Below are positions 5,436 to 36,334 of a DNA stretch of 58,725 nt, piece by piece (the stretch's first letter is position 1; every line of letters begins with the position of its first letter). The stretch comes from an uncultured Bacteroidales bacterium (lineage in GTDB: Bacteria; Bacteroidota; Bacteroidia; Bacteroidales; UBA4417). The notes beneath the pieces are model-generated. The model did no database searches. It worked only from the letters and a program-made list of their open reading frames with translations, and was not told the DNA's origin. The translations under genes were made by a program, and so were the position numbers. The stretch is from assembly GCA_903879715.1 (NCBI GenBank), contig CAIRMR010000106.1, positions 1-58,725 on the forward strand, in the 5' to 3' direction.

Positions 5436-5502
5436 CCGTTTAAGATATTATTTAAAACATTTCAATTTAAATAACTAAAAATTAAAGCATATAAAATAAA
5501 AG

Positions 5503-9049: not shown

Positions 9050-9061
9050 AAACAAGCCAAG

Positions 9062-11825: not shown

Positions 11826-12782
11826 ATGATGAAGAAAGCAAGAACAGTACTGCTTATCATAGCCCTTATTCTGGCTACTCCATCCTATAACTTGCAAGCC
11901 GGCGAGCCGGTTACAGGTCTTCTAATTTGTTGCAGAGGATCAAACATGGGACCATTTTTAATTAATGGGGAATGGAACCAGAGTCATGATTATGGGGATA
12001 TTAATCAGGTTCGGGGAATATTAACGAATATCAAGGATGCCGGAATTAATGTGGTTTATATTGATATGACAAATCCTTCACAATGGACAAGATTGTGGGA
12101 TGAATTCAAACCTATGATTGAAAATATACGAACTGTTTGTGCAGAAAAAAAGATGGAATATTTCATTATGATTGGGGCAGTTATGTCAGACGCAGTTAGA
12201 GCGGAACCTAATATGCCTGAGTGGTTAAAAACGATCGGTCATTTAGAGTTTTGGAATTTGCAGGCTAAATACATCTGGGAAAATTACGCTCAGGATAGTC
12301 ATTACAGAACCTATGGATATGGCGATAACAGAAAAATAATAACTATGTTTTATCCCGGCGAATTAGTTGATACGCTATGGAATGGTTCCCCGGATGAGCA
12401 TAAAACCTATCTTTCAAAATTTTACAGGGGAACCCACGAGTATAATCAGGATTTTAAGGATACTCCAACAGATGGCTGGGGATATCGCGATAAACAGCAA
12501 AGTTCGGATGGGAAGATACGCTGTGTATGTCCAACTTCTGGTTTGCACCCGGGCAGCTCAACATTCATAAGCCAGAAACAATGGATAGAAAGGGTAAACT
12601 GGGTGGCTGAGGCTGAGCATTATAGTGTTTATGGCTCGTATGATGATACCTGTGATAATATTCATTGGGGCATTCACGACACAAAAGATGTTACCAATCC
12701 TAATCGCAAGTATGCAAATGATGATCCATATATTTATTACAATGTGGTAAAGGAGAAGCTAACAAAGAGTATGAAACGATAA
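11826..12782 (+). CDS. CCR-family secreted protein, copy 1 (unrecognised family)
   Basis: 318 residues with a signal peptide (TVLLIIALILATPSYNLQA). One of four family copies in the window; I know no named family for it. Conserved across all four: a CCR motif right after the signal (Cys35-Cys36-Arg37), F-L-I/V-N-G-x-W-N, HDY-x-DINQV, an AG(I/V)..(V/I)..DM(T/S)N-x-SQWT-x-LW segment (Asp80, Trp87), IGA, a W...W then YR-x-YG(Y/F)GD-x-R segment, KTYLSK, DGWGYR (216-221), S-x-DGK(I/V)R, and the strongest block YGSYDD...IHWGI..TK (269-287). The alternating strand/helix pattern with DM and IGA at strand ends looks like a TIM barrel, so a glycosidase is plausible; distant kinship to GH71/GH99-like proteins is a guess. 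It starts two bases after the GH78 gene. It is close to 90 % identical in its mature part to the copy at 18718. Confidence 0.7.
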   Translation: MMKKARTVLLIIALILATPSYNLQAGEPVTGLLICCRGSNMGPFLINGEWNQSHDYGDINQVRGILTNIKDAGINVVYIDMTNPSQWTRLWDEFKPMIENIRTVCAEKKMEYFIMIGAVMSDAVRAEPNMPEWLKTIGHLEFWNLQAKYIWENYAQDSHYRTYGYGDNRKIITMFYPGELVDTLWNGSPDEHKTYLSKFYRGTHEYNQDFKDTPTDGWGYRDKQQSSDGKIRCVCPTSGLHPGSSTFISQKQWIERVNWVAEAEHYSVYGSYDDTCDNIHWGIHDTKDVTNPNRKYANDDPYIYYNVVKEKLTKSMKR

Positions 12783-13100
12783 GTCGGGAAAAATCTACAA
12801 ATGTGAGTTTCGGCATCAAATTATCTGTGATTGTGCAAATCAATTTAGGATAGACTTTAATTAGCCTTGTCGCAAAAAAATTATAGCATTTAGCAGAGCA
12901 AAATTAACTACTGGAACAAATAAATGCGTTCATTTAGGTAAAATCAAAACAACAATAGTAAAGACGCTGAAATGAGATTGTTGAGAGAGCGCAACGGGGA
13001 TGTTTCATCAGAAAATTGTAAATCATTGGAATAGTTTTAAGTCCTGAAAATCAATATCATTAAATAAGAGTCAAATATTTATCAACTAATAAATAAGAAA
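12783..13100 (+). other. Intergenic stretch, no feature recognised
   Basis: 318 bases, AT-rich, between the first CCR-family gene and the DUF1080 gene. I see no open frame of interest, no hairpin followed by a T-run and no remnant of neighbouring genes. It probably holds the promoter for the DUF1080-Kelch-ThuA group, but no confident consensus match was found. Confidence 0.4.
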
Positions 13101-13916
13101 ATGAAACTAAAAAAACTAAATTCTATCGCGGTTATCCTTTTACTGATTTTTTCAGGAATAGTGAATTGTAATGCTCAGTCAAAAAAATCGAAAGACGGTT
13201 TTGTAAGTCTTTTGAATGGTGAAAACCTGGATGGTTGGTACCTGAAAATCTTTAATGGCGATGCCGAACTGGCTAAAAAAGTTTATGCTGTTGAAGATGG
13301 AATGGTGCACGTTTTTAAAGACTTTCCGAAGGAATATGAATTAAACACTAGTGGAAATGCGACTCACGGACTATTCTATACCAACAAAAAATACAGCAAA
13401 TTCATTTTCAGATTCGAATACAAATGGGGATCCGGAATAGCCAATAACTTCGACCAGTTTCAATACGATGCCGGGATGTATTATCATGTAGTTGATGATA
13501 AAATATGGCCAATAGGCATTGAATATCAGGTTCGCTATGATCATACGAAAAACCGAAACCACACGGGTGATTATTGGGCATCAAATATTCAGTGGTACTC
13601 GAAAGATGGTGAAACATTTTCTTCACCATCTGCAGGTGGAAAACCGGTTACTTCAAAAGCGGGTTAACACCGGTGTTCGGCCGATGCAAAGTTTAATGCG
13701 TTAAACAACAAATGGAACAAATGCGAGGTGATTGTAATGGGCAACGAATATTCGATTCATATACTGAATGGGGAAATTGTAAATATGGCTACCAACCTGC
13801 CTTTTAGCGAGGGAGTGATTGGTTTGCAGTCGGAAACAGCCGAAATTTATTACCGCAATATCGAGATCAAAGAATTTGACGAAGTAGTTCCAATGGAGAA
13901 ATTCCTGAAAAAATAA
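13101..13916 (+). pseudogene. DUF1080 (3-keto-glycoside hydrolase-like) gene with in-frame TAA
   Basis: Signal peptide (IAVILLLIFSGIVNCNAQ), then the DUF1080 concanavalin-like fold: DGFVSLLNGENLDGWYLKI, YSKFIFRFEYKWG, DAGMYYHVVDDKIWPIGIEY. The frame stops at TAA 13665-13667 after GKPVTSKAG but continues unchanged with KFNALNNKWNKCEVIVMG, HILNGEIVNMATN and GVIGLQSETAEIYYRNIEIK, which is the normal DUF1080 C-terminus, ending at 13916. One codon change would restore about 271 residues. The truncated product lacks the last two fold-closing segments. Family knowledge: DUF1080 members hydrolyse 3-keto-glycosides produced by sugar 3-dehydrogenases, often beside ThuA-like proteins, as here. Whether the stop is real or an assembly error cannot be told from one sequence. 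Confidence 0.8.
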
Positions 13917-13920
13917 ACTG

Positions 13921-14907
13921 ATGAAGAGAATCACATTTCCTGCACTTTCAATTCTGACGATCATCGGATTTGGTTCGTTAGCCCAAAACTTCAATGTCTA
14001 TGAATGGGAAACACTCACCTGCAAAGGTGAGCCTGTTGCCAGGCATGAGGCCGCTTTTATTGAAGCCAATGGCAATTTTTACCTGGTTGGAGGACGCCGT
14101 ATTCAGGAAGTTTCCATTTTTAATCCGGAAACAAATACCTGGACCAATGGTGCAAAACCACCGGTAGAACTCCATCACTTCGAAGGTTTTTCTTACAAAG
14201 GCAATATTTACGCAGTTGGCGTTCAAACCGGAAATTACCCGCACGAAACTTCAATGAAGCAAACCTATATCTATAATCCGGCAACCGACACCTGGGAAAA
14301 GAACTTCGATATGCCCGAAGGTCGTGTACGCGCATCGACCACTGCCAAAGTGTATAAAGACAAACTGTATGTTGCCTGTGGAATTATTGACGGACATTGG
14401 GAAGGTCACGTCAAATGGTTCGATTGCTATGATTTTAAAACCGGCAAATGGGAAATCCTGCCTGATGCTCCCCGTTTTCGCGACCATGCCACTTCGGTAA
14501 TTTGTAACGACAAACTCTATTTATTGGGAGGTCGCGTCACTTCAGGATCGATTGATAAAGTATTTGAGTTAACGGTACCTGAGGTAGATGTTTACGATTT
14601 CAAGACCGGCAAATGGAGTACTTTGGCCGACCCGGTTCCTACACAGCGGGCAGGTTGCACTGCAACTGCAATTGGCGACAAAATCATATTCACCGGTGGC
14701 GAAAGTATGTCGCAAGAAGATGCTCATAATCAGGTTGAATGTCTTGATACGAAAACCGGTAAATGGAGCAAATTGCCGTCGTTAAATACGGGCCGACATG
14801 GCACACAATTAATCTGGTACAAAAAGAAATTGTACATCGCTTCGGGTTGTGGCCACAGGGGAGGAGCTCCCGAATTAAAAAGCATTGAGTGTTTCAGTAA
14901 AAATTAA
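13921..14907 (+). CDS. Secreted Kelch-repeat beta-propeller protein
   Basis: 328 residues, signal peptide up to about LTIIGFGSLAQ. At least five Kelch-type blades are visible, each with a Gly-Gly or equivalent strand and a ..N.W/K.W turn: GNFYLVGGRRIQEVSIFNPE, YIYNPATDTWEK, FDCYDFKTGKWEILPDAPR, DKLYLLGGRVTSG, VDVYDFKTGKWSTLADPVP, DKIIFTGGES and ECLDTKTGKWSKLPSLNTG. Kelch propellers of this size act as binding scaffolds or as lyase/oxidase-like enzymes; nothing here fixes the activity. The start is four bases after the DUF1080 stop and ThuA follows 22 bases later, so the three genes look co-transcribed. Together they suggest a role in the same keto-sugar step, which is inference from context only. 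Confidence 0.85.
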   Translation: MKRITFPALSILTIIGFGSLAQNFNVYEWETLTCKGEPVARHEAAFIEANGNFYLVGGRRIQEVSIFNPETNTWTNGAKPPVELHHFEGFSYKGNIYAVGVQTGNYPHETSMKQTYIYNPATDTWEKNFDMPEGRVRASTTAKVYKDKLYVACGIIDGHWEGHVKWFDCYDFKTGKWEILPDAPRFRDHATSVICNDKLYLLGGRVTSGSIDKVFELTVPEVDVYDFKTGKWSTLADPVPTQRAGCTATAIGDKIIFTGGESMSQEDAHNQVECLDTKTGKWSKLPSLNTGRHGTQLIWYKKKLYIASGCGHRGGAPELKSIECFSKN

Positions 14908-14929
14908 TCTAAACCAATAAAAAGAAACT

Positions 14930-15826
14930 ATGAATAAAAAAGTCGCACTTCTGTTTCTGGTGGTTCTTAGTCTGGGACTTCAGGCAAAACCCATCAAAGT
15001 AATGCTGCTTACCGGGCAAACCGACAAGTACCATAGATGGGATATCACCTCTTCGTATCTGGAGGCCGTTTTGAAACAGGAAAAAAGATTTGTGATCGAA
15101 AAAGTATTGATTCCGGCACAGGGAAAAGCGTTTGATGAGTTTGTACCTGATTTTTCGAGCTTTCAGGTTGTGGTTTTGGCGATGAACCTTTCTGATTGGA
15201 ACGAAAAAGCAAAATCCGCTTTTGAGAATTTTGTCAAAAAGGGCGGTGGTGTGGTAATGGTACACGAAGCGAATAATGCATTTCCAACCTGGAAGGAGTA
15301 CAATAAAATGGCTGCGTTGGGTGGCTGGGGAAACCGAACCGAAAGAGATGGACCCTATTATTACTGGAAAGACGGAAAATATGTAACCGACAATTCACCC
15401 GGTCCGGGCGGTAAACATGGGGAGCGTGTTCCATTTGTGGTGAATATTCGCGATACCGAACACCCCATAACTAAAGGATTACCCACCAGGTGGCTGCACC
15501 AAAATGATGAATTATATGGTGATCTGCGTGGTCCGGCTGAAAACATTCATGTACTCGCTACAGCTTTTTCGGAACAAGCATCGGGAGGAACAGGAAAAGA
15601 AGAACCGGTATTATTTACAGTTTCGTATGGTAAAGGTCGTGTGTTTCAAACCGTAATGGGGCATACCGGAACCGATTATGCCGACTCGGTTGAAGATGTT
15701 GGCTTTCAGGTAACCTTCTCGAGAGCTGTTGAATGGGTCGCAACCGGAAAAGTAAAGCAAAAACTTCCTGCCGATTTTCCAAAAGAAAGCACAATATTAT
15801 TAAAAAAATTAAATCAATTAAAGTAA
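14930..15826 (+). CDS. ThuA-like (trehalose utilisation family) secreted protein
   Basis: 298 residues, signal peptide VALLFLVVLSLGLQA. The ThuA/class-I amidotransferase-like fold is clear: KVMLLTGQTDKYHRWDITSS at the start, VVVLAMNLSDW, ENFVKKGGGVVMVHEANNAF, a HPITKGLPTRWLHQNDELYG segment, and the terminal GKGRVFQTVMGHTGTDYAD. These match family positions rather than a proven active site. Family knowledge links ThuA-like proteins to metabolism of 3-keto-disaccharides or their products, consistent with the DUF1080 gene two places upstream. The last roughly 35 residues (from about 254, EDVGFQVTFSRAVEWVA) recur as a fragment inside the TIM-barrel gene at 19682. The next gene starts 11 bases after the stop. 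Confidence 0.85.
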   Translation: MNKKVALLFLVVLSLGLQAKPIKVMLLTGQTDKYHRWDITSSYLEAVLKQEKRFVIEKVLIPAQGKAFDEFVPDFSSFQVVVLAMNLSDWNEKAKSAFENFVKKGGGVVMVHEANNAFPTWKEYNKMAALGGWGNRTERDGPYYYWKDGKYVTDNSPGPGGKHGERVPFVVNIRDTEHPITKGLPTRWLHQNDELYGDLRGPAENIHVLATAFSEQASGGTGKEEPVLFTVSYGKGRVFQTVMGHTGTDYADSVEDVGFQVTFSRAVEWVATGKVKQKLPADFPKESTILLKKLNQLK

Positions 15827-15837
15827 AATAAATAATT

Positions 15838-18615
15838 ATGAAAACAAGACTATTCCTAGTACTTCAATTGCAACTAATTATATTGATTAGTGTAGACCTA
15901 AAAGCACAAACCTGGAATGAACGCCCGGTTTATTCAATGAAAACAGTTTATGAACAGGATTTTACTACAAATCAATGGGATGGAACTAAATTCTATAACC
16001 AATGGATTGCTCATGCAACTAATAGCTTTGTTGTAACTGATATCGCAAATGGATTTTTACAATATGCATGGATAGAGAAACGTATTCTTCGTTCAAAAGT
16101 GAATTATAGTTCACCTTATTTCTTAGAGGCCAAAATTGCATATGGTACTGGCTCAAATTATGGAGGATTAGTTATAAGAACGGTTGGAAATAGTAATGGT
16201 GAAGGGGTTCAGGAACCGGCAGATACCGGGGGAGGAGATGGATTCAATACGGAAGGAATTGCCTTTTACCCTACAACCACAGGAGATTCGTTGATTGTTC
16301 AGTTTACCGGAGCATTTGTTCTGCACAAAACGCCGGTTACAAGGATTAAAGTTCCAAAAGCCCTCGGTGTTTCAAATTTCAAAGACATAAACATTTTCCG
16401 AATCGAAGACATGGATTCTTCCATTTATGTATTCGTTAATAACGAACCCTTTATAAAAATTGAATTAACTGATAAAACAGGCACAAGTTACACCTCAGGT
16501 AGTGTTTATACTGCAGCAATGGAGCTTGTTGGTTCATTTTCTAACATGTTAGTTAATCAGGCTGGAGCGGTTGCAATTTGTCAACGTGTAGCCACACTTA
16601 GGTTGTACTCTGTCAAAATACAGGTTGTCAATATTAAAACACAAAAAATTAGTTTTAATCCTTTTGGTGTTAAAACAATTGTTGATCAGCCCTTTAAAAT
16701 CAATGCAGTTGCTTCTTCCGGACTACCTGTTACTTATAGTTTGGTTTCAGGACCCGCCATACTCGAAAATGATTCTGTAAAATTGACAGGTAAAGTTGGA
16801 GTTGTTAATATCTTAATTAGTCAAACAGGTAATGCAGAATATCTTCCTGTCTCCATAAATATGAGTTTTTTTGTAACAAAACCTGAAAAATTAAATTCTG
16901 CTATTCCTGTAACCGGTTTACTATTATGCTGCAGGGGTGGAGGCGAATACGACAGGGGAACTTTTTTAATTAATGGGCAATGGAATGCGAACCACAATTA
17001 TAGAGACATAAATCAGGTTAGAGGTATTTTAACTCATATTCAAAATGCCGGAATCAATATCGTATGTCTTGATATGAGTAATCCGTCGCAATGGACTAGA
17101 TTATGGGATGAATATAGTCCTATGGTAGAAAACATACGTACAGTTTGTGCCGAGAAGAATATGGAATATTTTATATTAATTGGAGCTGTTGTAACCGATG
17201 CCGTTAGAAATGAACCAGGTATGCCGGCTTATATGAAAACAATAGGTCATCTGGAGTTTTGGAACAACCAGGCAAAATATATTTGGGATAATTGGGCTAC
17301 AGATGTTCATTACAGGACTTATGGCTTTGGTGACAGCAGAAAAATAATAAATTTGTTTTATCCCGGACAATTGGTTAATTCTCTGTGGAATAGTACCGCG
17401 GACGCGCATAAAACCTACCTTTCAAAATATTATCGGGGCACTCATGAGTATAATCAGGATTTTACTGACACACCAACAGATGGCTGGGGATATCGTGATG
17501 TTCAACAAAGTTCCGACGGAAAAATTCGGTTTGTGAGTCCAACCTCAGGTTTGGTTCCAAACTCTGCTGTACACATTACTGCCGAGAAATGGGCCGAAAG
17601 AATTGAATGGGCTTCTAAAGCAGATCATTATAGTATATATGGATCTTATGATGACAATAATGATAATATTCATTGGGGTATAAACAATACCAAAAACGCT
17701 GCAAGTATGTATAGGTATCTTGTTGATGATCCGTATTATTATTACAATGTTTTAAAGAATAAGTTAACCTCAAGTCTTGAAGTCTCATTTATTAACCCGT
17801 TAAACAACAATGCCTTCGAAATAGGCTCAAACATTGATGTAGAAGTATATGCAAAAGCAGAAGATGGTGTTTCAGCTGTAAAGCTTTATATAAACGATAC
17901 CCTGGTAAGTGAAGATAGCGAAGCTCCTTATCAATGGAACTCGACCAACTCATTGCTTGCAAACATGGCCGAGGGATACTATACCTTAAAAGCGGTGGCA
18001 ACCAATGCTAACGGGAATACCGCAATAGAAACAATAAGAATCAGTGTTGGCCAGCCCGATAAGGCCCCTAAAGTTTCGTTTATTAAACCGTTAAACAACC
18101 AAATCTTCACAGCACCCGCTAATTTGATGGCAGAGGTAAATGCAGTAGATGAGACTAGTATTTACAAGGTCGAACTTTATTCAAATGACGTTTTAGTAAG
18201 TACTGATTACACGTCACCTTACATCTGGGGATATGGTTATAAGCCATTGACAAATATGGCCGCTGGAAGCTACACCTTAAAAGCTGTTGCCACGGATAAT
18301 ACTGGCCATATAAGTGATACAACTATTAATATTGTTGTTTCGTCTGCTGTTGGGATTTCTGAATTCTCATCAGAGCAAAATCTGATCACGGTATATCCCA
18401 ATCCTGCTGACCATGAATTAAATATTCGGTTTTCTAATACCGGACTTGAAGATTCTGAAGCAATAATCTACAATTCTATCGGTGAAAGAGTAATTTTTCA
18501 ACTCATTTCAGATTCTCAATCAACAATTAGCTTAAAACATTTACCTGCAGGTGTTTATATCCTTAAGATAATGCGGAATGAGAAAATGCATTTGGAAAGA
18601 TTTATTAAGAATTAG
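15838..18615 (+). CDS. Multidomain T9SS-secreted protein carrying CCR-family domain (copy 2)
   Basis: 925 residues. Order: signal peptide (1-22); jelly-roll/concanavalin-like domain (about 30-265: EQDFTTNQWDGTKFYNQWIA, YGGLVIRTVGNS, DSSIYVFVNNEPFIKI); an Ig-like segment with the FNPFGVKTIVDQPFKINAVA/SGLPVTYSLVSGPA pattern (about 268-345); the CCR-family domain (about 357-640) with GLLLCCRGG, DINQVRGIL, DMSNPSQWTRLW, DGWGYRD and YGSYDDNNDNIHWGI; two tandem Ig-like Big_7-type repeats (about 650-737 and 744-838, each VSFI.PLNN... ending ..YTLKAVAT); and a T9SS type A sorting domain (about 843-925, VYPNPADHELNI...AGVYILKI). It is probably displayed on or released from the cell surface, with the N-terminal and Ig modules positioning the CCR domain. 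It starts 11 bases after ThuA and a stand-alone CCR copy follows. Confidence 0.8.
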   Translation: MKTRLFLVLQLQLIILISVDLKAQTWNERPVYSMKTVYEQDFTTNQWDGTKFYNQWIAHATNSFVVTDIANGFLQYAWIEKRILRSKVNYSSPYFLEAKIAYGTGSNYGGLVIRTVGNSNGEGVQEPADTGGGDGFNTEGIAFYPTTTGDSLIVQFTGAFVLHKTPVTRIKVPKALGVSNFKDINIFRIEDMDSSIYVFVNNEPFIKIELTDKTGTSYTSGSVYTAAMELVGSFSNMLVNQAGAVAICQRVATLRLYSVKIQVVNIKTQKISFNPFGVKTIVDQPFKINAVASSGLPVTYSLVSGPAILENDSVKLTGKVGVVNILISQTGNAEYLPVSINMSFFVTKPEKLNSAIPVTGLLLCCRGGGEYDRGTFLINGQWNANHNYRDINQVRGILTHIQNAGINIVCLDMSNPSQWTRLWDEYSPMVENIRTVCAEKNMEYFILIGAVVTDAVRNEPGMPAYMKTIGHLEFWNNQAKYIWDNWATDVHYRTYGFGDSRKIINLFYPGQLVNSLWNSTADAHKTYLSKYYRGTHEYNQDFTDTPTDGWGYRDVQQSSDGKIRFVSPTSGLVPNSAVHITAEKWAERIEWASKADHYSIYGSYDDNNDNIHWGINNTKNAASMYRYLVDDPYYYYNVLKNKLTSSLEVSFINPLNNNAFEIGSNIDVEVYAKAEDGVSAVKLYINDTLVSEDSEAPYQWNSTNSLLANMAEGYYTLKAVATNANGNTAIETIRISVGQPDKAPKVSFIKPLNNQIFTAPANLMAEVNAVDETSIYKVELYSNDVLVSTDYTSPYIWGYGYKPLTNMAAGSYTLKAVATDNTGHISDTTINIVVSSAVGISEFSSEQNLITVYPNPADHELNIRFSNTGLEDSEAIIYNSIGERVIFQLISDSQSTISLKHLPAGVYILKIMRNEKMHLERFIKN

Positions 18616-18717
18616 ATAGTAATTCAACAAAGATATAGCAAAAAGTCTAATGAGGTAATCGGCCTAAATGCAAAGAGTAAAAAGTTTTCTGAAGTCAATT
18701 TTAAAAAACATATTATT

Positions 18718-19674
18718 ATGAAGAACAATGTAAGAACACTGCTAGTTATGATTGCCATTATTCTGGCTATCCCATTCCAAAACTTACAAGCTGGCGAACC
18801 GGTTACAGGCCTGTTAATTTGTTGCAGAGGATCAAACATGGGACCATTTTTAATTAATGGGGAATGGAACCAGAGTCATGATTATGGGGATATAAACCAG
18901 GTTCGGGGAATATTAACGGATATCCGGAATGCCGGAATTAATATCGTATATATCGATATGACAAATCCATCGCAATGGACGCGATTGTGGGATGAATTCA
19001 AACCTATGATTGAAAACATACGAACTGTTTGCGCAGAAAAGAAGATGGAATATTTCATTATGATTGGGGCAGTTGTATCGGATGCGGTTAGAAGGGAACA
19101 AGGCATGCCGGCGTATATAAAAACTGTAGGCAATTTAGAGTTTTGGAATAATCAGGCTAAATACACCTGGGAAAATTACGCACAGGATAGTCATTACAGA
19201 ACGTACGGTTTTGGTGATAACAGGAAAATGATTACGATGTTTTATCCCGGTGTATTGGTTGATACGCTATGGAATGGCACGCCGGATGAACATAAAACCT
19301 ATCTTTCAAAATTCTATCGGGGAACCCATGAGTATAATCAGGATTTTAAAGATACTCCAACTGATGGCTGGGGATATCGTGATATACAGAAAAGTTCAGA
19401 TGGAAAAATTCGTTTTGTATGTCCAACTTCAGGTTTACACCCGGGAAGCTCAACATTTTTAACCCGGCAACAATGGATAGAAAGGGTAAATTGGGTTACA
19501 GAGGCTGAGCATTATAGTGTTTTTGGCTCGTATGACGATACTTGTGATAATATTCATTGGGGCATTCACGACACAAAAGATGTTACCAATCCTAATCGTA
19601 AGTATGCAAATGATGATCCTTATGTTTATTATAAAGCTGTAAAGGATAAGTTAACAAAAAGTACGAATCGATAA
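18718..19674 (+). CDS. CCR-family secreted protein, copy 3
   Basis: 318 residues, signal peptide LLVMIAIILAIPFQNLQA. The same length as copy 1 (11826-12782) and close to 90 % identical in the mature part; stretches of DNA around 18826-18910 and 11934-12019 are nearly base-for-base the same. All family motifs are kept: CCR, DYGDINQVRGIL, YIDMTNPSQWTRLW, YRTYGFGD, KTYLSKFYRGT, DGWGYRD, FGSYDD and IHWGIHDTK. Copies 1 and 3 are therefore a recent duplication or have undergone gene conversion; they flank the DUF1080-Kelch-ThuA-fusion block as direct repeats. The function is unknown, presumably the same as copy 1. The next gene begins eight bases after the stop. Confidence 0.7.
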   Translation: MKNNVRTLLVMIAIILAIPFQNLQAGEPVTGLLICCRGSNMGPFLINGEWNQSHDYGDINQVRGILTDIRNAGINIVYIDMTNPSQWTRLWDEFKPMIENIRTVCAEKKMEYFIMIGAVVSDAVRREQGMPAYIKTVGNLEFWNNQAKYTWENYAQDSHYRTYGFGDNRKMITMFYPGVLVDTLWNGTPDEHKTYLSKFYRGTHEYNQDFKDTPTDGWGYRDIQKSSDGKIRFVCPTSGLHPGSSTFLTRQQWIERVNWVTEAEHYSVFGSYDDTCDNIHWGIHDTKDVTNPNRKYANDDPYVYYKAVKDKLTKSTNR

Positions 19675-19681
19675 TTATAAA

Positions 19682-20974
19682 ATGAAAAACAGGAACATGT
19701 TATTGCTGGCTATTGCCATTCTTTTTTCAGTATGTAACTTTCAGGGTAAAGCTTTTCCACCCCCAAAAGCAAATATTGCACATATACTTACCAACGATTT
19801 TAGATACCCGGTAGTAGATACCGGATTTCAGGTTAATTTTTCGCCTGGTACTGAATGGGCAGCGAATGGAAATGCTGAGCAAAAACTTCCGGCCGGATTG
19901 TCTGATGAAACAAAACCTTTGCAAAGTGATAAAGAGAGCACTTCAACAAGGACAAAAGTCAGTATCAAAGGTGATGCATTTTGTATTAATGGGATACCAA
20001 CTTACCCGGGAAGAACCTGGAAGGGGCTAAAAATAGAAGGTTTGCTCATGAATTCGCGCATGGTGCAAGGCATCTTCGATGATATGAATCCAGCCTCTGT
20101 TAATTCATTTGCATATCCGGATACAAAAAAATGGGATGCCGACCGGAACAACAGGGAGTTTGTTGAGAATATGCCGTTGTGGTATTCATATGGTTTAAAT
20201 TGTTTCACGCTGAATATGCAGGGCGGCAGTCCTGTGGGCTATGGCGCTTCAAAGTGCTTGAATACCGGGTTCAATCCTGACGGTTCATTATTGGAACCCT
20301 ATATGAAAAGGTTAGACAATATCCTGAAAAAAGCAGATGAGTTAAAGATGGTAGTTATTCTTGGAATCTTTTATTTTGGTCAGGATCAGTATATGACCGA
20401 TGAAAAGGCAATCAAAAATGCCACGACGAATATTGTTGATTGGTTGTTTGAAAAAGGGTACCAGAATGTAATTATTGAGATTGTAAATGAAACCAACTTC
20501 GTATATTATGACCATACAATCCTGCTACCCGACAGAATCCATGAATTGATTGATTTGGTAAAAAATATAGAGAAAAATGGTTATCGCTATCTGGTTGGTA
20601 CAAGTTTTGGCGGATTGGATATCCCTACGGCTAATGTTGTAAAATCTTCCGATTTCCTGCTTATCCATGGAAATGGCGGAAAAGATCCGATGCAGATTCA
20701 AAAATTGGCGGATGATACCCGAAATGTGAAGGGGTATCATACAATGCCTGTAATTAACAACGAAGATGATCATTACGATTTTGAAAATGAGAATAACAAC
20801 TTTACCACTTCCATTAAAAACTACATCTCTTGGGGTTATTTCGACTATCGCTTTCCGGGCGAAACCGATTATAAAGAAGGATATCAAAGTATTCCGGTTG
20901 ACTGGGGTATTAACTCGGAACGGAAGAAAGCATTTTTCCGGAAGGTGAAAGAAATCACTGCAGGTAACAAATAA
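19682..20974 (+). CDS. TIM-barrel glycosidase-like protein with a ThuA-tail fragment at its N-terminus
   Basis: 430 residues: signal peptide (MLLLAIAILFSVCNF, about 1-25), a linker that includes residues 44-77 similar to the ThuA C-terminus (DTGFQVNF..EWAANG..QKLPA against DVGFQVTF..EWVATG..QKLPA; about 18 of 34 identical), then a TIM-barrel domain from about residue 92 (VSIKGDAFCINGIPTYPG). Clan GH-A-like points: MVVILGIFYFG on a strand, VIIEIVNETNF (Asn-Glu, the usual acid/base position) and HTMPVINNEDDHYDF (a late Glu, possible nucleophile). I cannot name a GH family; GH5-like is the best description. It is likely periplasmic or secreted and co-transcribed with the CCR-family gene just upstream. 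The ThuA piece is far too short to fold as ThuA and looks like recombination debris kept in frame. Confidence 0.65.
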   Translation: MKNRNMLLLAIAILFSVCNFQGKAFPPPKANIAHILTNDFRYPVVDTGFQVNFSPGTEWAANGNAEQKLPAGLSDETKPLQSDKESTSTRTKVSIKGDAFCINGIPTYPGRTWKGLKIEGLLMNSRMVQGIFDDMNPASVNSFAYPDTKKWDADRNNREFVENMPLWYSYGLNCFTLNMQGGSPVGYGASKCLNTGFNPDGSLLEPYMKRLDNILKKADELKMVVILGIFYFGQDQYMTDEKAIKNATTNIVDWLFEKGYQNVIIEIVNETNFVYYDHTILLPDRIHELIDLVKNIEKNGYRYLVGTSFGGLDIPTANVVKSSDFLLIHGNGGKDPMQIQKLADDTRNVKGYHTMPVINNEDDHYDFENENNNFTTSIKNYISWGYFDYRFPGETDYKEGYQSIPVDWGINSERKKAFFRKVKEITAGNK

Positions 20975-21005
20975 TATTTGGCAGCCGTAAAGCCAAATAC
21001 CTGGT

Positions 21006-21089
21006 TCTGAAAAACATGTAAATCAGCTATACACCCTTTCCCTGATGGAATTTCCGCCTGATAAATCAGTTTTTATTGTTGAAAAATAA
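21006..21089 (+). pseudogene. Remnant of a GH106-like gene 3' end
   Basis: From about 21021 to 21089 the DNA is clearly homologous to the last 69 bases of the GH106-like gene (5206-5274). The final 32 bases are nearly identical and encode the tail PPDKSVFIVEK against PPVKSVFIVEK. No upstream coding part remains, and the frame is broken just 5' of this. This is the decayed end of another copy of that gene. Confidence 0.75.
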
Positions 21090-21183
21090 GATAAATAAAC
21101 AGAACCATAAGGAAATACATCTGAGAACTTTGCCTGCTGATATGCAGTAAACAACAAACGCATTTTCGTAAGCTTCCAGTTCC

Positions 21184-21381
21184 CTGGTTAAAAAAGGAGA
21201 TAACGACCTGAAAATTGAAATCGTCAACAACTGGATGAACCGCCTGATCGGCGACCAGAAACTTCCGGCTGCTCAGCGATTAACCTGGTGCCCGGTAAAT
21301 CTTTACAAAGCGAATAGTCCGTTGCAGCCTTCCGGATTGTTTGGTCCGGTGAAAATTCAGGTAGTTAAAAAAGATTTATAA
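21184..21381 (+). pseudogene. Remnant of a full-length GH106 C-terminal domain
   Basis: An open stretch of 65 codons without a start reads KKGDNDLKIEIVNNWMNRLI, GDQKLPAAQRLTWCPVNLYK and SGLFGPVKIQV up to TAA at 21379-21381. This is the C-terminal sandwich end typical of long GH106 (and some GH2) enzymes: an L.I.V.N.W.NRLIGD pattern, then PSGL.GPV. The two GH106-like genes in the window lack this domain, so the remnant comes from a different, longer gene that has been lost. Confidence 0.75.
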
Positions 21382-21421
21382 TGTTGCTGTTAAACACATT
21401 CCATCAGTTAAATGATATAAT

Positions 21422-22465: not shown

Positions 22466-22545
22466 CGATTTGGCAGGAATGTCAATTTATTCTTACTCTT
22501 TTTCAAATCATAATCAGAAATGCTTTCCCCTAAAAGAATCAGTTC

Positions 22546-23754
22546 ATGAAAAAACTACTCTCAATTGCAATTATTTTGCTTGTCGTTTTTACATCCTGTA
22601 AATCAGGCAAAAAAGCTGATATTAGCAAGGATAAAATTACTGTTGCAGCTTACTATTTCGCCAATTACCATACGGATGATCCCCGGAATATCATCAATAA
22701 AGGTGCCGGATGGTCGGAGTGGGAACTGGTTAAAGCTGCTCAGCCGCGTTTCCCGGGACACCACCAGCCCAATGTGCCTGCCTGGAGATATACTGATGAA
22801 AAAGACCCTAAGGTTATGGCGCAGAAAATTGATGCAGCTGCTGATTATGGAATCGACTGCTTTATTTTCGACTGGTATATGTACGAAGATGGCCTTTTCC
22901 TGAACCAATGCATTGATGATGGCTTTCTGAAAGCAAAGAATGTTGACCGCATTAATTTCGCTCTGATGTGGGCCAATCACGATTGGGTGGATATCCAGCC
23001 CTATACGAGGGGAACTGAACAAAAACTGCTTTATCCGGGAAAAGTTTCTCCAAAACGTTTTGATGAAATATGTGATTTTATCATAAAGGAATATTTCACC
23101 AAACCAAACTATTGGAAGATAGATGACAAAGCTTATTTTTCGGTGTATGATGTACAGAAATTTGTAGAAGGATTTGGCAGTATGGAAGCCACAAAAGCCG
23201 CTATGGACCGTATGCGTGAAAAAGCCATTGCTGCCGGGCTGAAAGGAGTGCACTGGAACCTGGTTGCCTGGGGAAATCCGATCCTCCCCGTTGAAAAAGC
23301 GCCCTCCAATACCCCTGAGCTGATCAAAATGCTGGGTTTTGATTCAAGCACATCTTATGTTTGGATTCATCATGCTGAATTACCCGAAACCCAAACCGAT
23401 TATAACATTGTCCGCGATGTTTATTTTGCATATTGGGATAAAGCGAAAACTGAATACGGAGTTCCTTATTTCCCTAATGTAACCATGGGCTGGGATCCAA
23501 GTCCGCGTTGCGATTTGAAATCAGAATGGGCACCTGTTGGCTATCCGTTTATGAACACCATCGGAAACAATACGCCCGAAAATTTTAAGACTGCTCTGCA
23601 AATGACCAAAGATAAATTATTGGCTGATCCAAACGGGCCAAGAATTTTAAACATCAATTGCTGGAACGAATGGACAGAAGGTAGCTACCTGGAACCCGAT
23701 ACCATTAATGGCATGGCTTACCTGGAAGCTGTAAAGGCCGTATTCAAAAATTAA
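22546..23754 (+). CDS. WbsX/GH99-like TIM-barrel lipoprotein
   Basis: 402 residues with a lipoprotein signal (IAIILLVVFTSC, Cys19). Residues 30-400 show the Glyco_tran_WbsX (GH99-like) pattern: ITVAAYYFANYHTDDPRNI at the first strand, WSEWELVKAAQPRFPGHHQP, the DYGIDCFIFDWYMYEDG strand, FALMWANHDW, YPGKVSPKRFDEICDFIIKE, and the terminal INCWNEWTEGSYLEPD block. Proteins with this domain occur in polysaccharide loci; GH99 relatives are endo-acting on mannans, but activity for this group is mostly unassigned. The acidic NEWTEG segment is a candidate active-site part by analogy. It stands 13 bases before the next gene, so they are probably co-transcribed. A lipoprotein location fits handling of oligosaccharides at the membrane. 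Confidence 0.8.
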   Translation: MKKLLSIAIILLVVFTSCKSGKKADISKDKITVAAYYFANYHTDDPRNIINKGAGWSEWELVKAAQPRFPGHHQPNVPAWRYTDEKDPKVMAQKIDAAADYGIDCFIFDWYMYEDGLFLNQCIDDGFLKAKNVDRINFALMWANHDWVDIQPYTRGTEQKLLYPGKVSPKRFDEICDFIIKEYFTKPNYWKIDDKAYFSVYDVQKFVEGFGSMEATKAAMDRMREKAIAAGLKGVHWNLVAWGNPILPVEKAPSNTPELIKMLGFDSSTSYVWIHHAELPETQTDYNIVRDVYFAYWDKAKTEYGVPYFPNVTMGWDPSPRCDLKSEWAPVGYPFMNTIGNNTPENFKTALQMTKDKLLADPNGPRILNINCWNEWTEGSYLEPDTINGMAYLEAVKAVFKN

Positions 23755-23767
23755 TACTACAATAAAT

Positions 23768-26290: not shown

Positions 26291-26710
26291 AGACCTGTAA
26301 ATAGGTTGACAAAAAGCTTAATTGGAACTGGCTGTAGTTGAGAATTGCGTGTTAAACTTTGTCTTTTCGTGCCTTTGTAGCAGTTTTCTTTATGTCGCAA
26401 TATCCCAAAGGCTCAAAGGATTCACCAGGTTTATGGATAATTCAGGTTAGAATCTGATCAATCAAGATTGATACAAATTCATAAGAAAAATACCAGAATT
26501 ATAAAGCTGCTCGGTTTGATTCCACTTAGTTTTGTTTGCATGAAAACCCCATTCTCCAAGTACCATAAACAACAAAAAAGATTACAGTTATTCTTATTGC
26601 CTTAGGTTGTTGACATAAACAATTTTCATCCTCAACGCTTCAGGAGGGTTTAATATCAACAAATTATCTTTTTTACTCACTACCGGTTCTGAAAAAAGGA
26701 ACCCAATGAA
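26291..26710 (+). other. Intergenic stretch before an orphan T9SS tail
   Basis: 420 bases, AT-rich, with no open frame I can link to a family. It includes TTTGTCTTTTCGTGCCTTTG (about 26356-26375), a phrase resembling repeats common between Bacteroidota genes. The body of whatever protein once carried the T9SS tail at 26711 was presumably here or upstream, but no trace is recognisable. Confidence 0.35.
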
Positions 26711-26944
26711 ATGGTTGAAGTATTTCCTAATCCGGCAACAAATCAACTGCAAATTGTTAATTCAGGGCTTCCAATCTATGAAATCAGAATTATAAATGTA
26801 AACGGCAATGATGTTTTCCAATGTGAGGAAGGATTAAACGATAACAAAACCATTGACATTAGTTGTTTATTACCAGGGCCATATTTAATTATTCTCAAAA
26901 ATGAAAAAGGGACAATCCGAAAAAAAATAGTAATTCAAAAATAA
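26711..26944 (+). pseudogene. Orphan T9SS type A sorting domain
   Basis: 77 codons: EVFPNPATNQLQIVNSG, IYEIRIINVNGNDVFQ, TIDISCLLPGPYLIIL and a basic end KKIVIQK. This is a complete T9SS C-terminal sorting domain without any signal peptide or passenger, so it cannot enter the Sec pathway by itself. It is most likely the surviving 3' end of a lost secreted protein. Its stop overlaps the next start (TAATG at 26942-26946), so if translated it would be coupled to the esterase gene. Confidence 0.7.
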
Positions 26945-28554: not shown

Positions 28555-29852
28555 TACGCTCTTCAAGTATTTTGTTGCTCTTTGCGTTGCTCCTTGGGTC
28601 ATGTGATTCAACAAAAAATGAATCCTCCTGGCGTAAGGAGCCTCTCACTACAGCCAAACCTGAGTCTCAGGGTTTCTCTTCCGAAAGGCTCGGCAGAATC
28701 GATAGCCTGTTTCAGAAATTTGTGGATCAGCGAGCGATCGCCGGCGTCACCGCCCTGGTAGCCCGTAAAGGGAAAATTGTGTATTTCAGATCGACCGGCT
28801 ATAATGACCTGGAAAACAAAGTTCCTCTGGAAAAAGATGCCATTTTCAGGATTGCATCTCAAACAAAGGCTATCACAAGTGTTGCGATAATGATGCTTTT
28901 TGAAGAAGGGCGTATCTCCCTGAATGACCCGATTTCGATGCACTTGCCTGAATTCAGCAACCCAAAGGTTATTACCGGTTTTAATAAGAAGGATTCGAGC
29001 TTTACCTCTCAAGCAGCAAAGAGAGCGGTAACCATCCACGATCTGCTTACCCATACTTCCGGCTACTGTTATCCGGGAAGCGGCGGAGAAGCCGTTAATG
29101 CTATCTACGCAAAACTAAGCATAGTAAATGGAGTTCCTGAAGCTGTTTCCACATTGAAGGAAGAGATGAGAAAAATAGCATTGGCACCACTGGCTCACGA
29201 ACCGGGAGAAAAGTTCTCTTACGGATTGAGTACAGATATCCTTGGTTACCTGGTTGAAACAGTTTCGGGACAGTCTCTGGAAGATTTCTTTCGTACAAAA
29301 ATCTTTGAACCGCTGGAAATGGCAGACACCTATTTTCAACTTCCCGTGGAGAAGCATTCCCGTCTGATGCTGCTTTACGAGGATAACATAAAAGGAGATG
29401 GGGTTCAAAAATCCACCGGGCAATATATAGATTACCCATTAAGGAAAGGGATTTATTTTTCAGGTGGAGGAGGATTGTCATCTACAGCAATGGATTATGC
29501 AAAATTCCTGCAAATGCTGCTTAACGAGGGAGAATATAACGGAACGCGCTTACTGAGCCGGAAAACAATTGAAATGATGCGTATCAACCAGATAGGAACA
29601 CTGGGTTCCGGTTCCCTTTTCATCCCGAACTCTGCAGATAAATTTGGACTTGGTTTCGAAGTGATCAGTCAACCGGGGAAAGCACAGATCCTTATTTCTG
29701 AAGGAGCCTTTGGTTGGGGTGGTGCTTTCGGTTCCCTTTACTGGATTGATCCAGGCGAAGACCTTATTGTTCAGTTTGTAATTCAAAAAGCAGGGAAGTA
29801 TTCTGACATCCGCAGTAAATTCATTACTACTGTTTACCAGGCAATGGAATGA
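28551..29852 (+). CDS. Beta-lactamase-family serine hydrolase lipoprotein (EstB-like)
   Basis: 433 residues. The lipoprotein signal SILLLFALLLGSC gives Cys18. PF00144-type fold: Ser103-x-x-Lys106 in IASQTKAITS, then IHDLLTHTSG, and a Tyr224 motif FSYGLSTDILG in place of the classical Y-x-N. The YG...D-(I/V)-LG form is typical of class C-like esterases such as EstB rather than of true beta-lactamases or penicillin-binding proteins. C-terminal GWGGAFGSLYW supplies the last conserved loop. It overlaps the preceding acetylesterase by four bases, so both are made together; de-esterification of acyl decorations on glycans is a fair inference. Antibiotic resistance is unlikely in this context. Confidence 0.8.
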   Translation: MIRSSSILLLFALLLGSCDSTKNESSWRKEPLTTAKPESQGFSSERLGRIDSLFQKFVDQRAIAGVTALVARKGKIVYFRSTGYNDLENKVPLEKDAIFRIASQTKAITSVAIMMLFEEGRISLNDPISMHLPEFSNPKVITGFNKKDSSFTSQAAKRAVTIHDLLTHTSGYCYPGSGGEAVNAIYAKLSIVNGVPEAVSTLKEEMRKIALAPLAHEPGEKFSYGLSTDILGYLVETVSGQSLEDFFRTKIFEPLEMADTYFQLPVEKHSRLMLLYEDNIKGDGVQKSTGQYIDYPLRKGIYFSGGGGLSSTAMDYAKFLQMLLNEGEYNGTRLLSRKTIEMMRINQIGTLGSGSLFIPNSADKFGLGFEVISQPGKAQILISEGAFGWGGAFGSLYWIDPGEDLIVQFVIQKAGKYSDIRSKFITTVYQAME

Positions 29853-29951
29853 TAAAAATTCCGGCATATGGATAGAGAGAAATTGCTGCCTTATCCTGAA
29901 TAAACTTGTTGTAAGTATAACTGCATTTATTACTCTAAAGGATTTTTAAAA

Positions 29952-31262
29952 ATGGCGTTAAAAATTGTTGTCACTTTAATTCTGCTTACATTTCTTTTTA
30001 GCTGTGGCACAGGAAAATCTGTTACCAGCAAATCCCGGGAAAATGCGAAATCTGAATTAACTGACGAATTCGTTATTATGGCCTTTTCCGGCCCTCCTCC
30101 TGAAGAGGTTACAAGAGAGCGGTTACAGGAGATAGCTGATGCCGGGATTGAAATCCTTGTACCGGGGAACGGCATTTTTAATGCTGAACAGAACCTCAAA
30201 GTAATGGATTTGGCCGAAAAAGTCGGCATCAGGGTCATTCCTGTTGATATGCGGGTGCTTCCTTTTTCGTTAAAGCCAGGCATTACGATTGACAAATCAA
30301 TCATTAAGGATGTGGTGAACGACTACAAGAGCCATCCTGCTCTTGCAGGTTATGTGATCAAAGATGAACCCGGTGCAGATTTATTTCCTGCTTTGAAAGT
30401 CCTTTCCGATTTGTTTCTTAACGAAGATCCCGCACACCAGCCTCTTATCAACCTGTTTCCATCCTACGCGAGTCCTGTTCAACTTGGCTTTGATAATTAC
30501 AGATCCTATATCACTTCCTATATTAAGACTGTTAAGCCAGGATTACTCTCGTATGATAATTATGCTTTACGCGAAGGAGCAACCTTATATAGCACATGGT
30601 ACTCCGATCTTACAATGGTTAGAGAGGAAACCCGGAAAGCAAATATCCCTTTTATGGTTTTTGTACAGAGTGAGGGCATAAAAGGAGGCTTACGCGTGCC
30701 CGACAGAGCCGAAATTCTCTGGCAGATAAACACCGCTTTAGCATACGGAGCCCGTGGATTTGGATGGTTCTGTTATTGGACGCCACAACCTGATCAGGGG
30801 TTTCCGCAGGAAGACGGGGCAATGCCTCCCATTATCGAGTCCCATTACAATGCAATGATTGATTTAAACGGTAAGCGGACAGAAGTATATGACTTTGTGC
30901 GTGAAGCCAATCTTTATCTGAAGAAAACCGGAAAGGGACTTCTTAACTGGGACAACACGAATGTTGCCCGTTATGAAGCAGGAAAAGTGGTTGAAGGCGG
31001 ATTTTCGCCTCTGGTTTCTCCGTCAGGTGAACAAGCAAATCTGGTGGTCGGCACTTACATGAAAGGCAAAATAAGCCGTATCGTCCTATCCAACAGTCAT
31101 TGCGACGAATCTGCAGCCTTTTCGATTCTGATTTCTTCAAAATGGAAGATCAGAGGGTTTTTTGCCTCCATAAACGCATCTCCGGCAGGTGATAAAGCAT
31201 CCCTGCTGGACTGGAATCTTGATCCGGGTGGCTCTGTTGTTATCGAGCTTCAACAGAAATAA
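29952..31262 (+). CDS. TIM-barrel glycosidase-like lipoprotein
   Basis: 436 residues with lipobox (LLTFLFSC, Cys18). The barrel strands are easy to see: FVIMAFSGPPPEEV, ADAGIEILVPGNG, GIRVIPVDMRVLPF, LAGYVIKDEPGADLFPAL (Glu in DEP at the usual acid/base strand), PGLLSYDNYALREG, IPFMVFVQSEGI and YGARGFGWFCYWTPQP. A small beta domain ends the protein (about 340-436). The layout matches clan GH-A proteins of GH42/GH2-catalytic type, but no family is named with confidence. It stands alone, 99 bases after the esterase and about 115 before the fourth CCR-family gene. The role in glycan breakdown is inferred from fold and place. Confidence 0.65.
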   Translation: MALKIVVTLILLTFLFSCGTGKSVTSKSRENAKSELTDEFVIMAFSGPPPEEVTRERLQEIADAGIEILVPGNGIFNAEQNLKVMDLAEKVGIRVIPVDMRVLPFSLKPGITIDKSIIKDVVNDYKSHPALAGYVIKDEPGADLFPALKVLSDLFLNEDPAHQPLINLFPSYASPVQLGFDNYRSYITSYIKTVKPGLLSYDNYALREGATLYSTWYSDLTMVREETRKANIPFMVFVQSEGIKGGLRVPDRAEILWQINTALAYGARGFGWFCYWTPQPDQGFPQEDGAMPPIIESHYNAMIDLNGKRTEVYDFVREANLYLKKTGKGLLNWDNTNVARYEAGKVVEGGFSPLVSPSGEQANLVVGTYMKGKISRIVLSNSHCDESAAFSILISSKWKIRGFFASINASPAGDKASLLDWNLDPGGSVVIELQQK

Positions 31263-31377
31263 CTATTTATTGAAACAGTAAAAGCCTGATCGGATTTCAC
31301 AGGCAGGAAATGAAGAATATGGGGAAATTATAACTAACGAAACCGATCATCTGTAATTCTAAATAAAGCATTTAAAA

Positions 31378-32310
31378 ATGAAATATTTCACGTCAAAAGT
31401 AGTATCAATAATTCTGATTACTTTGCTGGCATATATCCCGAAAGTTAATGCCGGTGAGCCTTGCTGCCATATACTGCTTTGTTGCCGGAGCACAAACGAT
31501 GGCATGAAATTTTTGGTCAATGGCTGGTGGAATCCGGCACATGATTACACGGATATCAATCAGGTATCGGACATCATGCAAAAAGTCAAGGATGCCGGAG
31601 TGAAGAACGTGATCATTGATATGACCAATGCATCGCAATGGACCAATCTCTGGAAAGAGTTTGAGCCTATGGTAAATAATGTGCAGAAAGTCTGCCGGCA
31701 AAAAGATATGCAATTCTTTGTTTTTATAGGAGCCGCTTTTACTGAGGATGACAAGAAAAATATCAGTTCGACCCCCTTTTCCTTCTGGAATGCAATGGCC
31801 AAAAATGTTTGGGAAATGTGGGCGCAGGATCCAACTTACAGGAGATACGGGTATGGCGATGATCGCCCTGTACTGATCGTATTCCAGCCTTCCGAAATGT
31901 ATTGGGAACGCTATCAGGCCGCACCAGATAGTGTGAAAACATATCTTTCGAAATTTCATATCGGCACAACACAGGTAAACGACCCGATCCTTCCCGGAAA
32001 ATCCGACGGATGGGGGTATAGGAATTATTCTCAGAGTGTTGATGGTAAAGTGCGTTTCGCTTGCCCCAATAAAGGAGTTCCTCCAGCCGATTGGGGCAGA
32101 ATAAACGGCGAAGAGTGGAAGAAAAGGGTTGAGTGGGCCACTGAAGCAGAAGAGTACAGCATTTATGGTTCATACGATGATGTTTGTGATGCCATTCACT
32201 GGGGAATAGCTGACACAAAGGATTGTGAAGTCGCTCATAAAAAATATCCGGACGATAAACCTGAATATTATTACAACATTCTGAAAGAGGTTTTAGAGAA
32301 AAACAAATAG
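31378..32310 (+). CDS. CCR-family secreted protein, copy 4 (divergent)
   Basis: 310 residues, signal peptide VSIILITLLAYIPKVNA. The most divergent of the four copies, and so the most useful for spotting constrained residues. Kept: ILLCCRS, KFLVNGWWNPAHDYTDINQV, IIDMTNASQWTNLW, FVFIGAA, YRRYGYGDDR, KTYLSKFHIGT, DGWGYRNYSQS, DGKVRFACP, and YGSYDDVCDAIHWGIADTKD. A loop around residues 118-135 differs and is shorter. Conservation of CC, DM.N.SQW, DGWGYR and GSYDD...HWG.. suggests an active or structural core. The function is unknown; a TIM-barrel hydrolase is a guess. It lies between a TIM-barrel lipoprotein and a repeated upstream element that begins the next unit. Confidence 0.7.
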   Translation: MKYFTSKVVSIILITLLAYIPKVNAGEPCCHILLCCRSTNDGMKFLVNGWWNPAHDYTDINQVSDIMQKVKDAGVKNVIIDMTNASQWTNLWKEFEPMVNNVQKVCRQKDMQFFVFIGAAFTEDDKKNISSTPFSFWNAMAKNVWEMWAQDPTYRRYGYGDDRPVLIVFQPSEMYWERYQAAPDSVKTYLSKFHIGTTQVNDPILPGKSDGWGYRNYSQSVDGKVRFACPNKGVPPADWGRINGEEWKKRVEWATEAEEYSIYGSYDDVCDAIHWGIADTKDCEVAHKKYPDDKPEYYYNILKEVLEKNK

Positions 32311-36237: not shown

Positions 36238-36334
36238 GGTTGAAATTCTTACATTCTATTGTTTCCAACTGATTGAATTGAGAATTCACTGAAATGTTTT
36301 CGAATCGAAAAACAGATATTGATAAGCTTAACAA

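What the first reader, a model, noticed from the sequence alone, without database searches (positions are those of the whole stretch)
11826..32310. Four-copy family of unrecognised secreted proteins (CCR family) at the centre of the locus
Copies at 11826-12782, inside 15838-18615, 18718-19674 and 31378-32310 share CCR, HDY.DINQV, DM.N.SQWT.LW, YR.YG.GD, DGWGYR and YGSYDD...IHWGI..TK. I recall no named family with this signature. Expansion to four copies, one fused into a T9SS modular protein, in a locus of otherwise known glycosidases suggests an enzyme family that matters for this substrate. Fold pattern hints at a TIM barrel; conserved Asp80, Asp216 and Asp273/274 (copy 1 numbering) are candidates for catalysis.
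Basis: partly seen in the sequence, partly recalled or inferred. Interest (0 to 1): 0.82.

Follow-up and report, generated by a model that had tools for sequence, protein, structure and literature searches.

The report
Unclassified GH99/GH71-like sugar-cleaving enzyme family
Four related secreted proteins in this bacterial gene cluster appear to be a so far unnamed, rare family of sugar-chain-cutting enzymes, distantly related to the known families GH99 and GH71 but with an altered active-site motif; no activity has been shown yet.

Summary
In detail: four homologous domains lie at the stated places (43.5-85.8% identity), and a fifth lies elsewhere in the genome. No Pfam or NCBIfam model reaches its cut-off on them; GH5 (PF00150) comes within 0.2 bits in one relative. 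A two-pattern scan of 84,980 genomes gave six loci; in samples of 393, 395 and 395 genomes only the window's own has a clear match.

AlphaFold models of c1 and c4 (pTM 0.83, 0.81) give a barrel-type fold; solved GH99 structures rank first for both, GH71 follows. Profile comparison prefers WbsX, weakly. All seven invariant acids of 12 members are Asp. D273, D274 and D277 follow the last strand, where GH71 and GH99 carry a catalytic D/E-x-x-E dyad. I propose a glycoside hydrolase with a D-x-x-D dyad, probably inverting. Neighbours are glycosidases; rhamnosidases or fucosidases in five of eight loci. In one relative the domain shares its CBM6-ricinB-T9SS tail with a neighbouring GH39.

The fold relationship is supported at moderate TM-scores. 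The dyad is inferred, not superposed. Substrate and activity are untested. Rated a new variant of a known kind.

The parts
11826..12782 (+). CCR copy c1, 318 aa: N-terminal signal-like helix, then the barrel domain (about residues 26-318)
12645..12656 (+). proposed catalytic dyad of c1: D274 (12645-12647) and D277 (12654-12656), motif GSYDDTCD
   Evidence: just after the last strand (266-271); equivalence to GH71/GH99 inferred
15838..18615 (+). modular protein with CCR copy c2: N-terminal part without Pfam match, CCR domain, two Big_7 stretches, T9SS sorting tail
16891..17781 (+). CCR domain of copy c2 (residues 352-648); dyad D606/D609
18718..19674 (+). CCR copy c3, 318 aa; duplicate of c1 (86.9% over 970 bases of DNA); dyad D274/D277
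31378..32310 (+). CCR copy c4, 310 aa; groups with L006/L007, not with c1-c3; dyad D268/D271
22546..23754 (+). WbsX (PF14307) protein; its family is the best profile partner of the CCR family among those compared
2965..11824 (+). GH106 proteins (2965-5274, 6884-9049) and a GH78 interrupted into two ORFs (9062-10600, 10613-11824); also a URO-D-like protein (5503-6636)
34546..58512 (+). amidohydrolase, GH2, GH78, CBM6-bearing protein, GH43, GH2 and two sulfatases of the same stretch; two proteins without Pfam match

Best explanation
The CCR family is a rare, unclassified family of secreted glycoside hydrolases whose barrel domain belongs to the GH71/GH99/WbsX superfamily. Shown by computation: homology of the copies, barrel-type fold, GH99 and GH71 as nearest solved structures, invariance of D273, D274 and D277 right after the last strand, and glycosidases as neighbours in most loci. 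Inferred: D274 and D277 are the equivalent of the D/E-x-x-E dyad; D274, short like the Asp of GH71, activates water, and D277 protonates the leaving group, giving inversion rather than the GH99-type 1,2-anhydro route. The invariant DGWGYR segment may line the cleft. The exported enzyme would cut a linkage of a complex glycan, perhaps one with rhamnose or fucose, together with partner enzymes of GH106, GH78, GH29, GH2, GH39 or GH43.
For: Foldseek of model 1: ranks 1-35 and 37 are GH99 (E 3.0e-6 to 6.9e-4), GH71 AnGH71C at rank 43. Model 2: of the first 41 ranks 36 are GH99 and 3 are GH71 AnGH71C (13, 17, 18); the other two are 5ngw 'glycoside hydrolase-like protein' (37) and a sialic acid synthetase (40). 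HHalign P 2.4e-4 with the 8-row WbsX/GH99-like profile, against 0.054-0.64 for eight control profiles and 0.0085-0.53 for 13 single-sequence controls. Last strand at c1 266-271 and c4 235-238, the Asp cluster directly after; PMC12394665 puts Asp265/Glu268 of AnGH71C at the beginning of the beta8-alpha8 loop. 7 of 7 invariant acids are Asp over 12 members. Neighbours. L011: SusC/SusD-type genes, two GH39, and a CCR protein whose CBM6-ricinB-T9SS tail is 68% identical over 400 aa to that of the GH39 beside it.
Against: No coordinates were at hand, so the dyad was not superposed. The local HHalign match covers only strands 2-4, and the forced global alignment does not place GSYDD on NEWTE. The probability was 78% with signal peptides kept, 44% without. 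The single GH99-like protein L022 alone gave only P 0.03, inside the range of the controls, and WbsX against a GH2 control profile reached P 0.0042, so chance or general barrel likeness can go that far. TM-scores over the query are modest (0.43-0.65 for GH99/GH71) and rmsd high (5.4-10.6 A). The stretch with D216 has pLDDT under 50 in both models, and two of five models in each set were poor. PF00150 (GH5) matches 4 of the 8 non-window members over strands 1-3, best 23.3 bits against a cut-off of 23.5, whereas GH99, GH71 and WbsX models match none of 10 members. An Asp as second dyad residue is not described in the passages I read. L010 copies lie among housekeeping-like genes.
Confidence: 0.55

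Rival explanations
1. A clan GH-A (GH5-like) glycosidase with the usual two catalytic Glu residues after strands 4 and 7.
For: PF00150 matches 3 of 10 members and 4 of 8 (L008 23.3 bits, cut-off 23.5), always over strands 1-3 only. Endoglucanase/cellulase structures come lower in the Foldseek lists (ranks 39 and 42; ranks 43-48).
Against: No Glu is invariant over 12 members, and no invariant acid stands at the ends of strands 4 and 7. GH99 outranks these enzymes in both fold searches.
Confidence: 0.09
2. A carbohydrate-binding or otherwise non-catalytic barrel, a descendant of a GH99-type enzyme that lost the dyad.
For: The proposed dyad residues differ from those of GH99 and GH71; two members are fused to binding modules.
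Against: Seven Asp, among them the three after the last strand, are invariant over members as far apart as 42% identity, which suggests more than binding. Purifying selection does not tell binding from catalysis.
Confidence: 0.15
3. A retaining enzyme with the GH99-type neighbouring-group (1,2-anhydro sugar) mechanism.
For: GH99 structures are the top matches.
Against: PMC12394665 (passages) finds Asp as first dyad residue almost only in GH71, for which it proposes inversion, and Glu almost only in the retaining GH99; the CCR family has Asp there in 12 of 12, if the dyad is rightly placed.
Confidence: 0.18

Closest known systems
GH99 endo-alpha-mannosidase/mannanase (BtGH99, BxGH99, human MANEA)
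   Same: Barrel fold, best Foldseek matches of both models; acids right after the last strand
   Different: 8-12% identity in the fold alignments; no EW[H/G]E and no H[I/L]EPY motif in 12 of 12 members; no PF16317 match among 10 members
GH71 alpha-1,3-glucanase (AnGH71C)
   Same: Fold match; Asp as first residue of the proposed dyad; dyad of AnGH71C at the beginning of the beta8-alpha8 loop
   Different: Second residue Asp, not Glu; c1 and c4 end with the last helix and have no C-terminal beta-sandwich; no PF03659 match among 10 members
WbsX family PF14307 (window 22546-23754)
   Same: Best profile-profile partner, over strands 2-4; a member lies in the window
   Different: Its members show NExxEG-type motifs such as NEWTEG; no PF14307 match by 10 CCR members
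Umbrella GH99/GH71-like domain models of NCBI CDD (recalled, no call)
   Same: As I recall, such models gather unclassified GH71/GH99 relatives
   Different: Not on hand; whether they cover this family is untested

Membership tests
GH99 | (beta/alpha)8 barrel resembling solved GH99 | tested here: met
   predicted models only, TM over the query 0.43-0.65
GH99 | EW[H/G]E catalytic motif and H[I/L]EPY motif (from PMC11025385, passages) | tested here: not met
   absent in 12 of 12 members
GH99 | match to PF16317 | tested here: not met
   not among the matches of 10 members at E up to 10
GH99 | retaining endo-alpha-1,2-mannanase activity | not testable with these tools
   needs the enzyme
GH71 | DxxE dyad at the beginning of the beta8-alpha8 loop | tested here: not met
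   position fits, but the motif there is DxxD in 12 of 12; equivalence inferred without superposition
GH71 | C-terminal beta-sandwich packed on the barrel | tested here: not met
   c1 and c4 models end with the last helix; c3 has the length of c1; the longer members were not modelled
GH71 | match to PF03659 | tested here: not met
   not among the matches of 10 members at E up to 10
WbsX (PF14307) | match to the family profile | tested here: not met
   HHalign P 2.4e-4 only
GH71/GH99/WbsX superfamily (loose sense) | shared barrel with an acidic pair after the last strand | tested here: inconclusive
   fold and position met; no residue-level superposition
Clan GH-A / GH5 | conserved Glu after strands 4 and 7 | tested here: not met
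   no invariant Glu in 12 members
Clan GH-A / GH5 | match to PF00150 at its cut-off | tested here: not met
   best 23.3 bits against 23.5, strands 1-3 only
CAZy family as listed by CAZy/dbCAN | dbCAN or CAZy assignment | not testable with these tools
   library not on hand

The most novel reading that the evidence does not exclude
Founding members of a new glycoside hydrolase family with a D-x-x-D dyad, a third branch beside GH99 (ExxE, retaining by a 1,2-anhydro sugar) and GH71 (DxxE, inverting), acting on a linkage of deoxyhexose-containing polysaccharides for which no enzyme is known.
Probability: 0.4. Interest if true: 0.62.

Novelty: new variant of a known kind. Interest (0 to 1): 0.45.

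Why it matters
GH99 and GH71 share a fold and a dyad yet are described with different mechanisms (PMC12394665, passages). A third lineage with a shortened second acid would be a natural test of what sets inversion against the epoxide route. It could also supply a tool enzyme for a complex glycan, and it would give a name to proteins that no Pfam or NCBIfam model recognises.

Tried and rejected
Relatives in viral contigs: none by tblastn among 37 pattern hits; in plasmids: none. The phylum sample gave two weak profile matches (E 0.00825 and 0.00852): one lies on an ORF of L018 that I take, by recall, for FtsY, and was rejected as chance; the other lies in a 4838-aa frame and was not examined. 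Solved-structure sequence searches gave only chance-level matches (hemagglutinins; antibody chains and one depolymerase). The window's WbsX protein had no PDB match at E up to 0.1. NCBIfam on 12 members gave only sub-cut-off matches, the commonest HAD-IIIA in 4 of 12, best E 0.0038. GH99 relatives were sought at E up to 1e-10 in 119 genomes; one GH99-like place was found, in the own genome. Of the 9 WbsX places, two with stop codons inside (L029, L031) were left out of the profile.

Literature: five answered searches by family names (no paper; 30: 20 of 26 listed; 51: 10 of 42; 58: 15 of 27; 73: 8 of 18). I saw titles and the start of abstracts in the listings, passages of PMC12394665 and its section 10, part 1 of 2, and passages of PMC11025385. 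None of the listed titles names this family; sequences cannot be searched that way, so 'unpublished' is not shown.

Limits of the distribution figure: the 84,980-genome scan used two peptide patterns only; the samples overlap and were drawn from larger groups.

Full report
What was reported and what is there. The four copies exist at the stated places. I call them c1 (11826-12782), c2 (domain 16891-17781 inside 15838-18615), c3 (18718-19674) and c4 (31378-32310). They are 43.5-85.8% identical, with E-values of 4.5e-88 or better. c1 and c3 are also 86.9% identical as DNA over 970 bases. dN/dS is 0.105-0.122 in 4 of the 5 pairs for which dS could be estimated and 0.480 in the fifth, the two L010 copies; in 4 of 9 pairs it could not be estimated, and the two pairs with c2 have dS near 2. 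c1/c3 and c4/L007 are thus best read as being under purifying selection. A fifth copy lies at G000:C150:1562-2491, inside a longer protein with a CBM6 module, beside two GH29 fucosidases, dehydrogenases, a PfkB kinase, a sodium:solute symporter and a ROK regulator.

Known families. No Pfam or NCBIfam model reaches its cut-off on the domain. PF00150 (GH5) is the nearest: 3 of 10 members, 4 of 8 members from other loci, best L008 with 23.3 bits against a cut-off of 23.5, always over strands 1-3. It does not match the window copies. PDB sequence searches give only chance-level matches.

Distribution. A scan of 84,980 genomes with two peptide patterns gave 6 loci, all labelled Bacteroidota. Profile searches of overlapping samples found a clear match in 1 of 393 genomes of the order, 1 of 395 of the class and 1 of 395 of the phylum, each time the window's own genome. 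The phylum sample had two further matches at E 0.008; one is a chance match on an FtsY-like ORF, the other was not examined. The four same-genus genomes listed lack it. A tree of 12 members sets c1-c3 apart as one clade (100/100) and groups c4 with L006 and L007 (99/98). The window thus holds two lineages: one expanded locally, and one shared with a Prolixibacteraceae and a Bacteroidales MAG.

Fold. AlphaFold2 on c1 with 10 sequences gave pLDDT 81.5 and pTM 0.83; on mature c4 with 11 sequences 77.3 and 0.81. The two lowest models of each set were poor (59.6 and 59.4; 54.5 and 47.7). The order of strands and helices is that of a barrel; in c4 seven of eight expected strands are drawn (2-8, 52-57, 87-93, 139-144, 169-173, 200-203, 235-238), and the region of the sixth, with D216 and most of DGWGYR, has pLDDT under 50 in both models. 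Foldseek put GH99 structures at ranks 1-35 and 37 for c1 (E 3.0e-6 to 6.9e-4), and at 36 of the first 41 ranks for c4 (best E 1.1e-6); GH71 AnGH71C came at rank 43 for c1 and at ranks 13, 17 and 18 for c4, with alpha-1,3-glucanase agn1 at rank 42. Rank 36 (c1) and 37 (c4) is 5ngw, a 'glycoside hydrolase-like protein' whose nature I did not look up. TM-scores over the query are 0.43-0.65 among the GH99 and GH71 matches, so the relationship is distant.

Sequence profile. HHalign of 12 mature members against 8 WbsX/GH99-like proteins gave P 2.4e-4, probability 44%; against the 7 WbsX proteins alone 3.9e-4. Eight other family profiles from these loci gave 0.054 to 0.64, and 13 single sequences 0.0085 to 0.53. 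Against this: the GH99-like protein L022 alone gave only 0.03; WbsX against a GH2 profile gave 0.0042; the controls are smaller than the WbsX set. With signal peptides kept and 10 members the probability was 78%; the trimmed figure is the fair one. The aligned part covers strands 2 to 4. The C-terminal half did not align convincingly, and the forced global alignment did not put GSYDD on the NEWxE motif. This counts against certainty on the dyad.

Active site. Over 12 members the invariant acids are D58, D80, D167, D216, D273, D274 and D277 (c1 numbering); no Glu is invariant. D273, D274 and D277 follow the last strand directly (266-271 in c1; 235-238 in c4). [quoted passage not shown] PMC11025385 (passages) gives EW[H/G]E for GH99 and DYGE for GH71. 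The phmmer alignment of the E333Q variant 4v28 shows which Glu is E333. The CCR motif is G-S-Y-D-D-x-x-D in 12 of 12; by spacing, D274 and D277 match the two Glu of S-F-N-E-W-H-E. This is inference: no superposition could be made. Clan GH-A is unlikely, since its two Glu are missing.

Context. Window: GH106 (two), an interrupted GH78, an intact GH78, GH43, GH2 (two), a GH32/GH43-like protein, WbsX, SASA esterase, a beta-lactamase-fold protein, ThuA, kelch protein, 3-keto-disaccharide-hydrolase-type protein, amidohydrolase, DUF362 and two sulfatases. L006 (11.1 kb): GH78, an arabinofuranosidase-type protein, GH106, amidohydrolase. L007 (9.3 kb): GH2 parts, GH39. L008: GH3, GH106, GH43, GH2, CotH, GH78, GH127. 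L009: ORFs of like size and order; of these two were scanned, one GH78 and one GH106-like just under its cut-off (28 against 29 bits). L010: two tandem CCR copies and three DUF5722-type proteins, of which two were scanned, otherwise genes that look like housekeeping genes. L011: SusC- and SusD-type genes, two GH39, and a CCR-CBM6-ricinB-T9SS protein whose tail is 68% identical over 400 aa to the tail of a neighbouring GH39. This tail sharing is the best single sign that the domain acts on carbohydrate. Rhamnosidase- or fucosidase-type neighbours were seen in 5 of 8 loci (window, C150, L006, L008, L009) and not in L007, L010 and L011.

Mechanism proposed. The exported domain binds a glycan in its cleft; D274 activates water, D277 protonates the leaving oxygen, and the product has inverted configuration. 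I prefer inversion because Asp as first residue goes with GH71, for which PMC12394665 proposes inversion. All of this is inferred. I put a glycosidase of this superfamily at about 0.73, and the full statement with inversion at 0.55.

Verdict. The family is not a member of GH99, GH71 or WbsX by the defining features tested; it probably works like them. It is a rare, unnamed relative with a changed dyad: a new variant of a known kind, of moderate interest. CAZy/dbCAN and CDD could not be consulted, so it may already have a number there.

Noticed in passing
window 9062-10600 and 10613-11824: A GH78 rhamnosidase is interrupted by an in-frame TAG at 10598-10600 into two ORFs in the same frame.
   Followed up: partly
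window 19682-20974: The 5' end of this weakly GH5-like ORF (residues 13-80) resembles the C-terminus of the ThuA protein at 14930-15826 (39.7% over 68 aa, E 2e-10): probably a duplication relic fused in frame.
   Followed up: partly
window 5396-5435 and 32502-32541: 40-base repeat (97.5%) with CATCTG/CAGATG ends, in front of two unrelated genes (the second copy overlaps the start codon of ORF 32537); 5 places with up to 3 mismatches in the genome, 0 for the reversed control.
   Followed up: partly
window 21011-21099: Stretch between ORFs, 84% identical to 5196-5284 at the 3' end of a GH106 gene: perhaps a gene relic.
   Followed up: no
window 631-2790: 719-aa protein without Pfam match, with relatives next to or one gene from the CCR gene in L006 (61%) and L007 (89%): a second unnamed partner family.
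   Followed up: partly
window 42395-45289 and 49314-51281: Two large proteins without Pfam match at E 0.001. DNA at 45103-45391 (3' end of the first) is 71% like 49082-49371 (between ORF 45419-49066 and the start of the second).
   Followed up: no
L010 1111-7103 and 9905-11907: Three DUF5722-type proteins in a row (two scanned) and two tandem CCR genes with lipobox-like N-termini (by eye), amid housekeeping-like genes.
   Followed up: partly
L022 943-2205 (G000:C153): A GH99-like protein with WNDFGEG, a GH71-style D-x-x-E, downstream of an ORF that looks SusD-like by eye.
   Followed up: no
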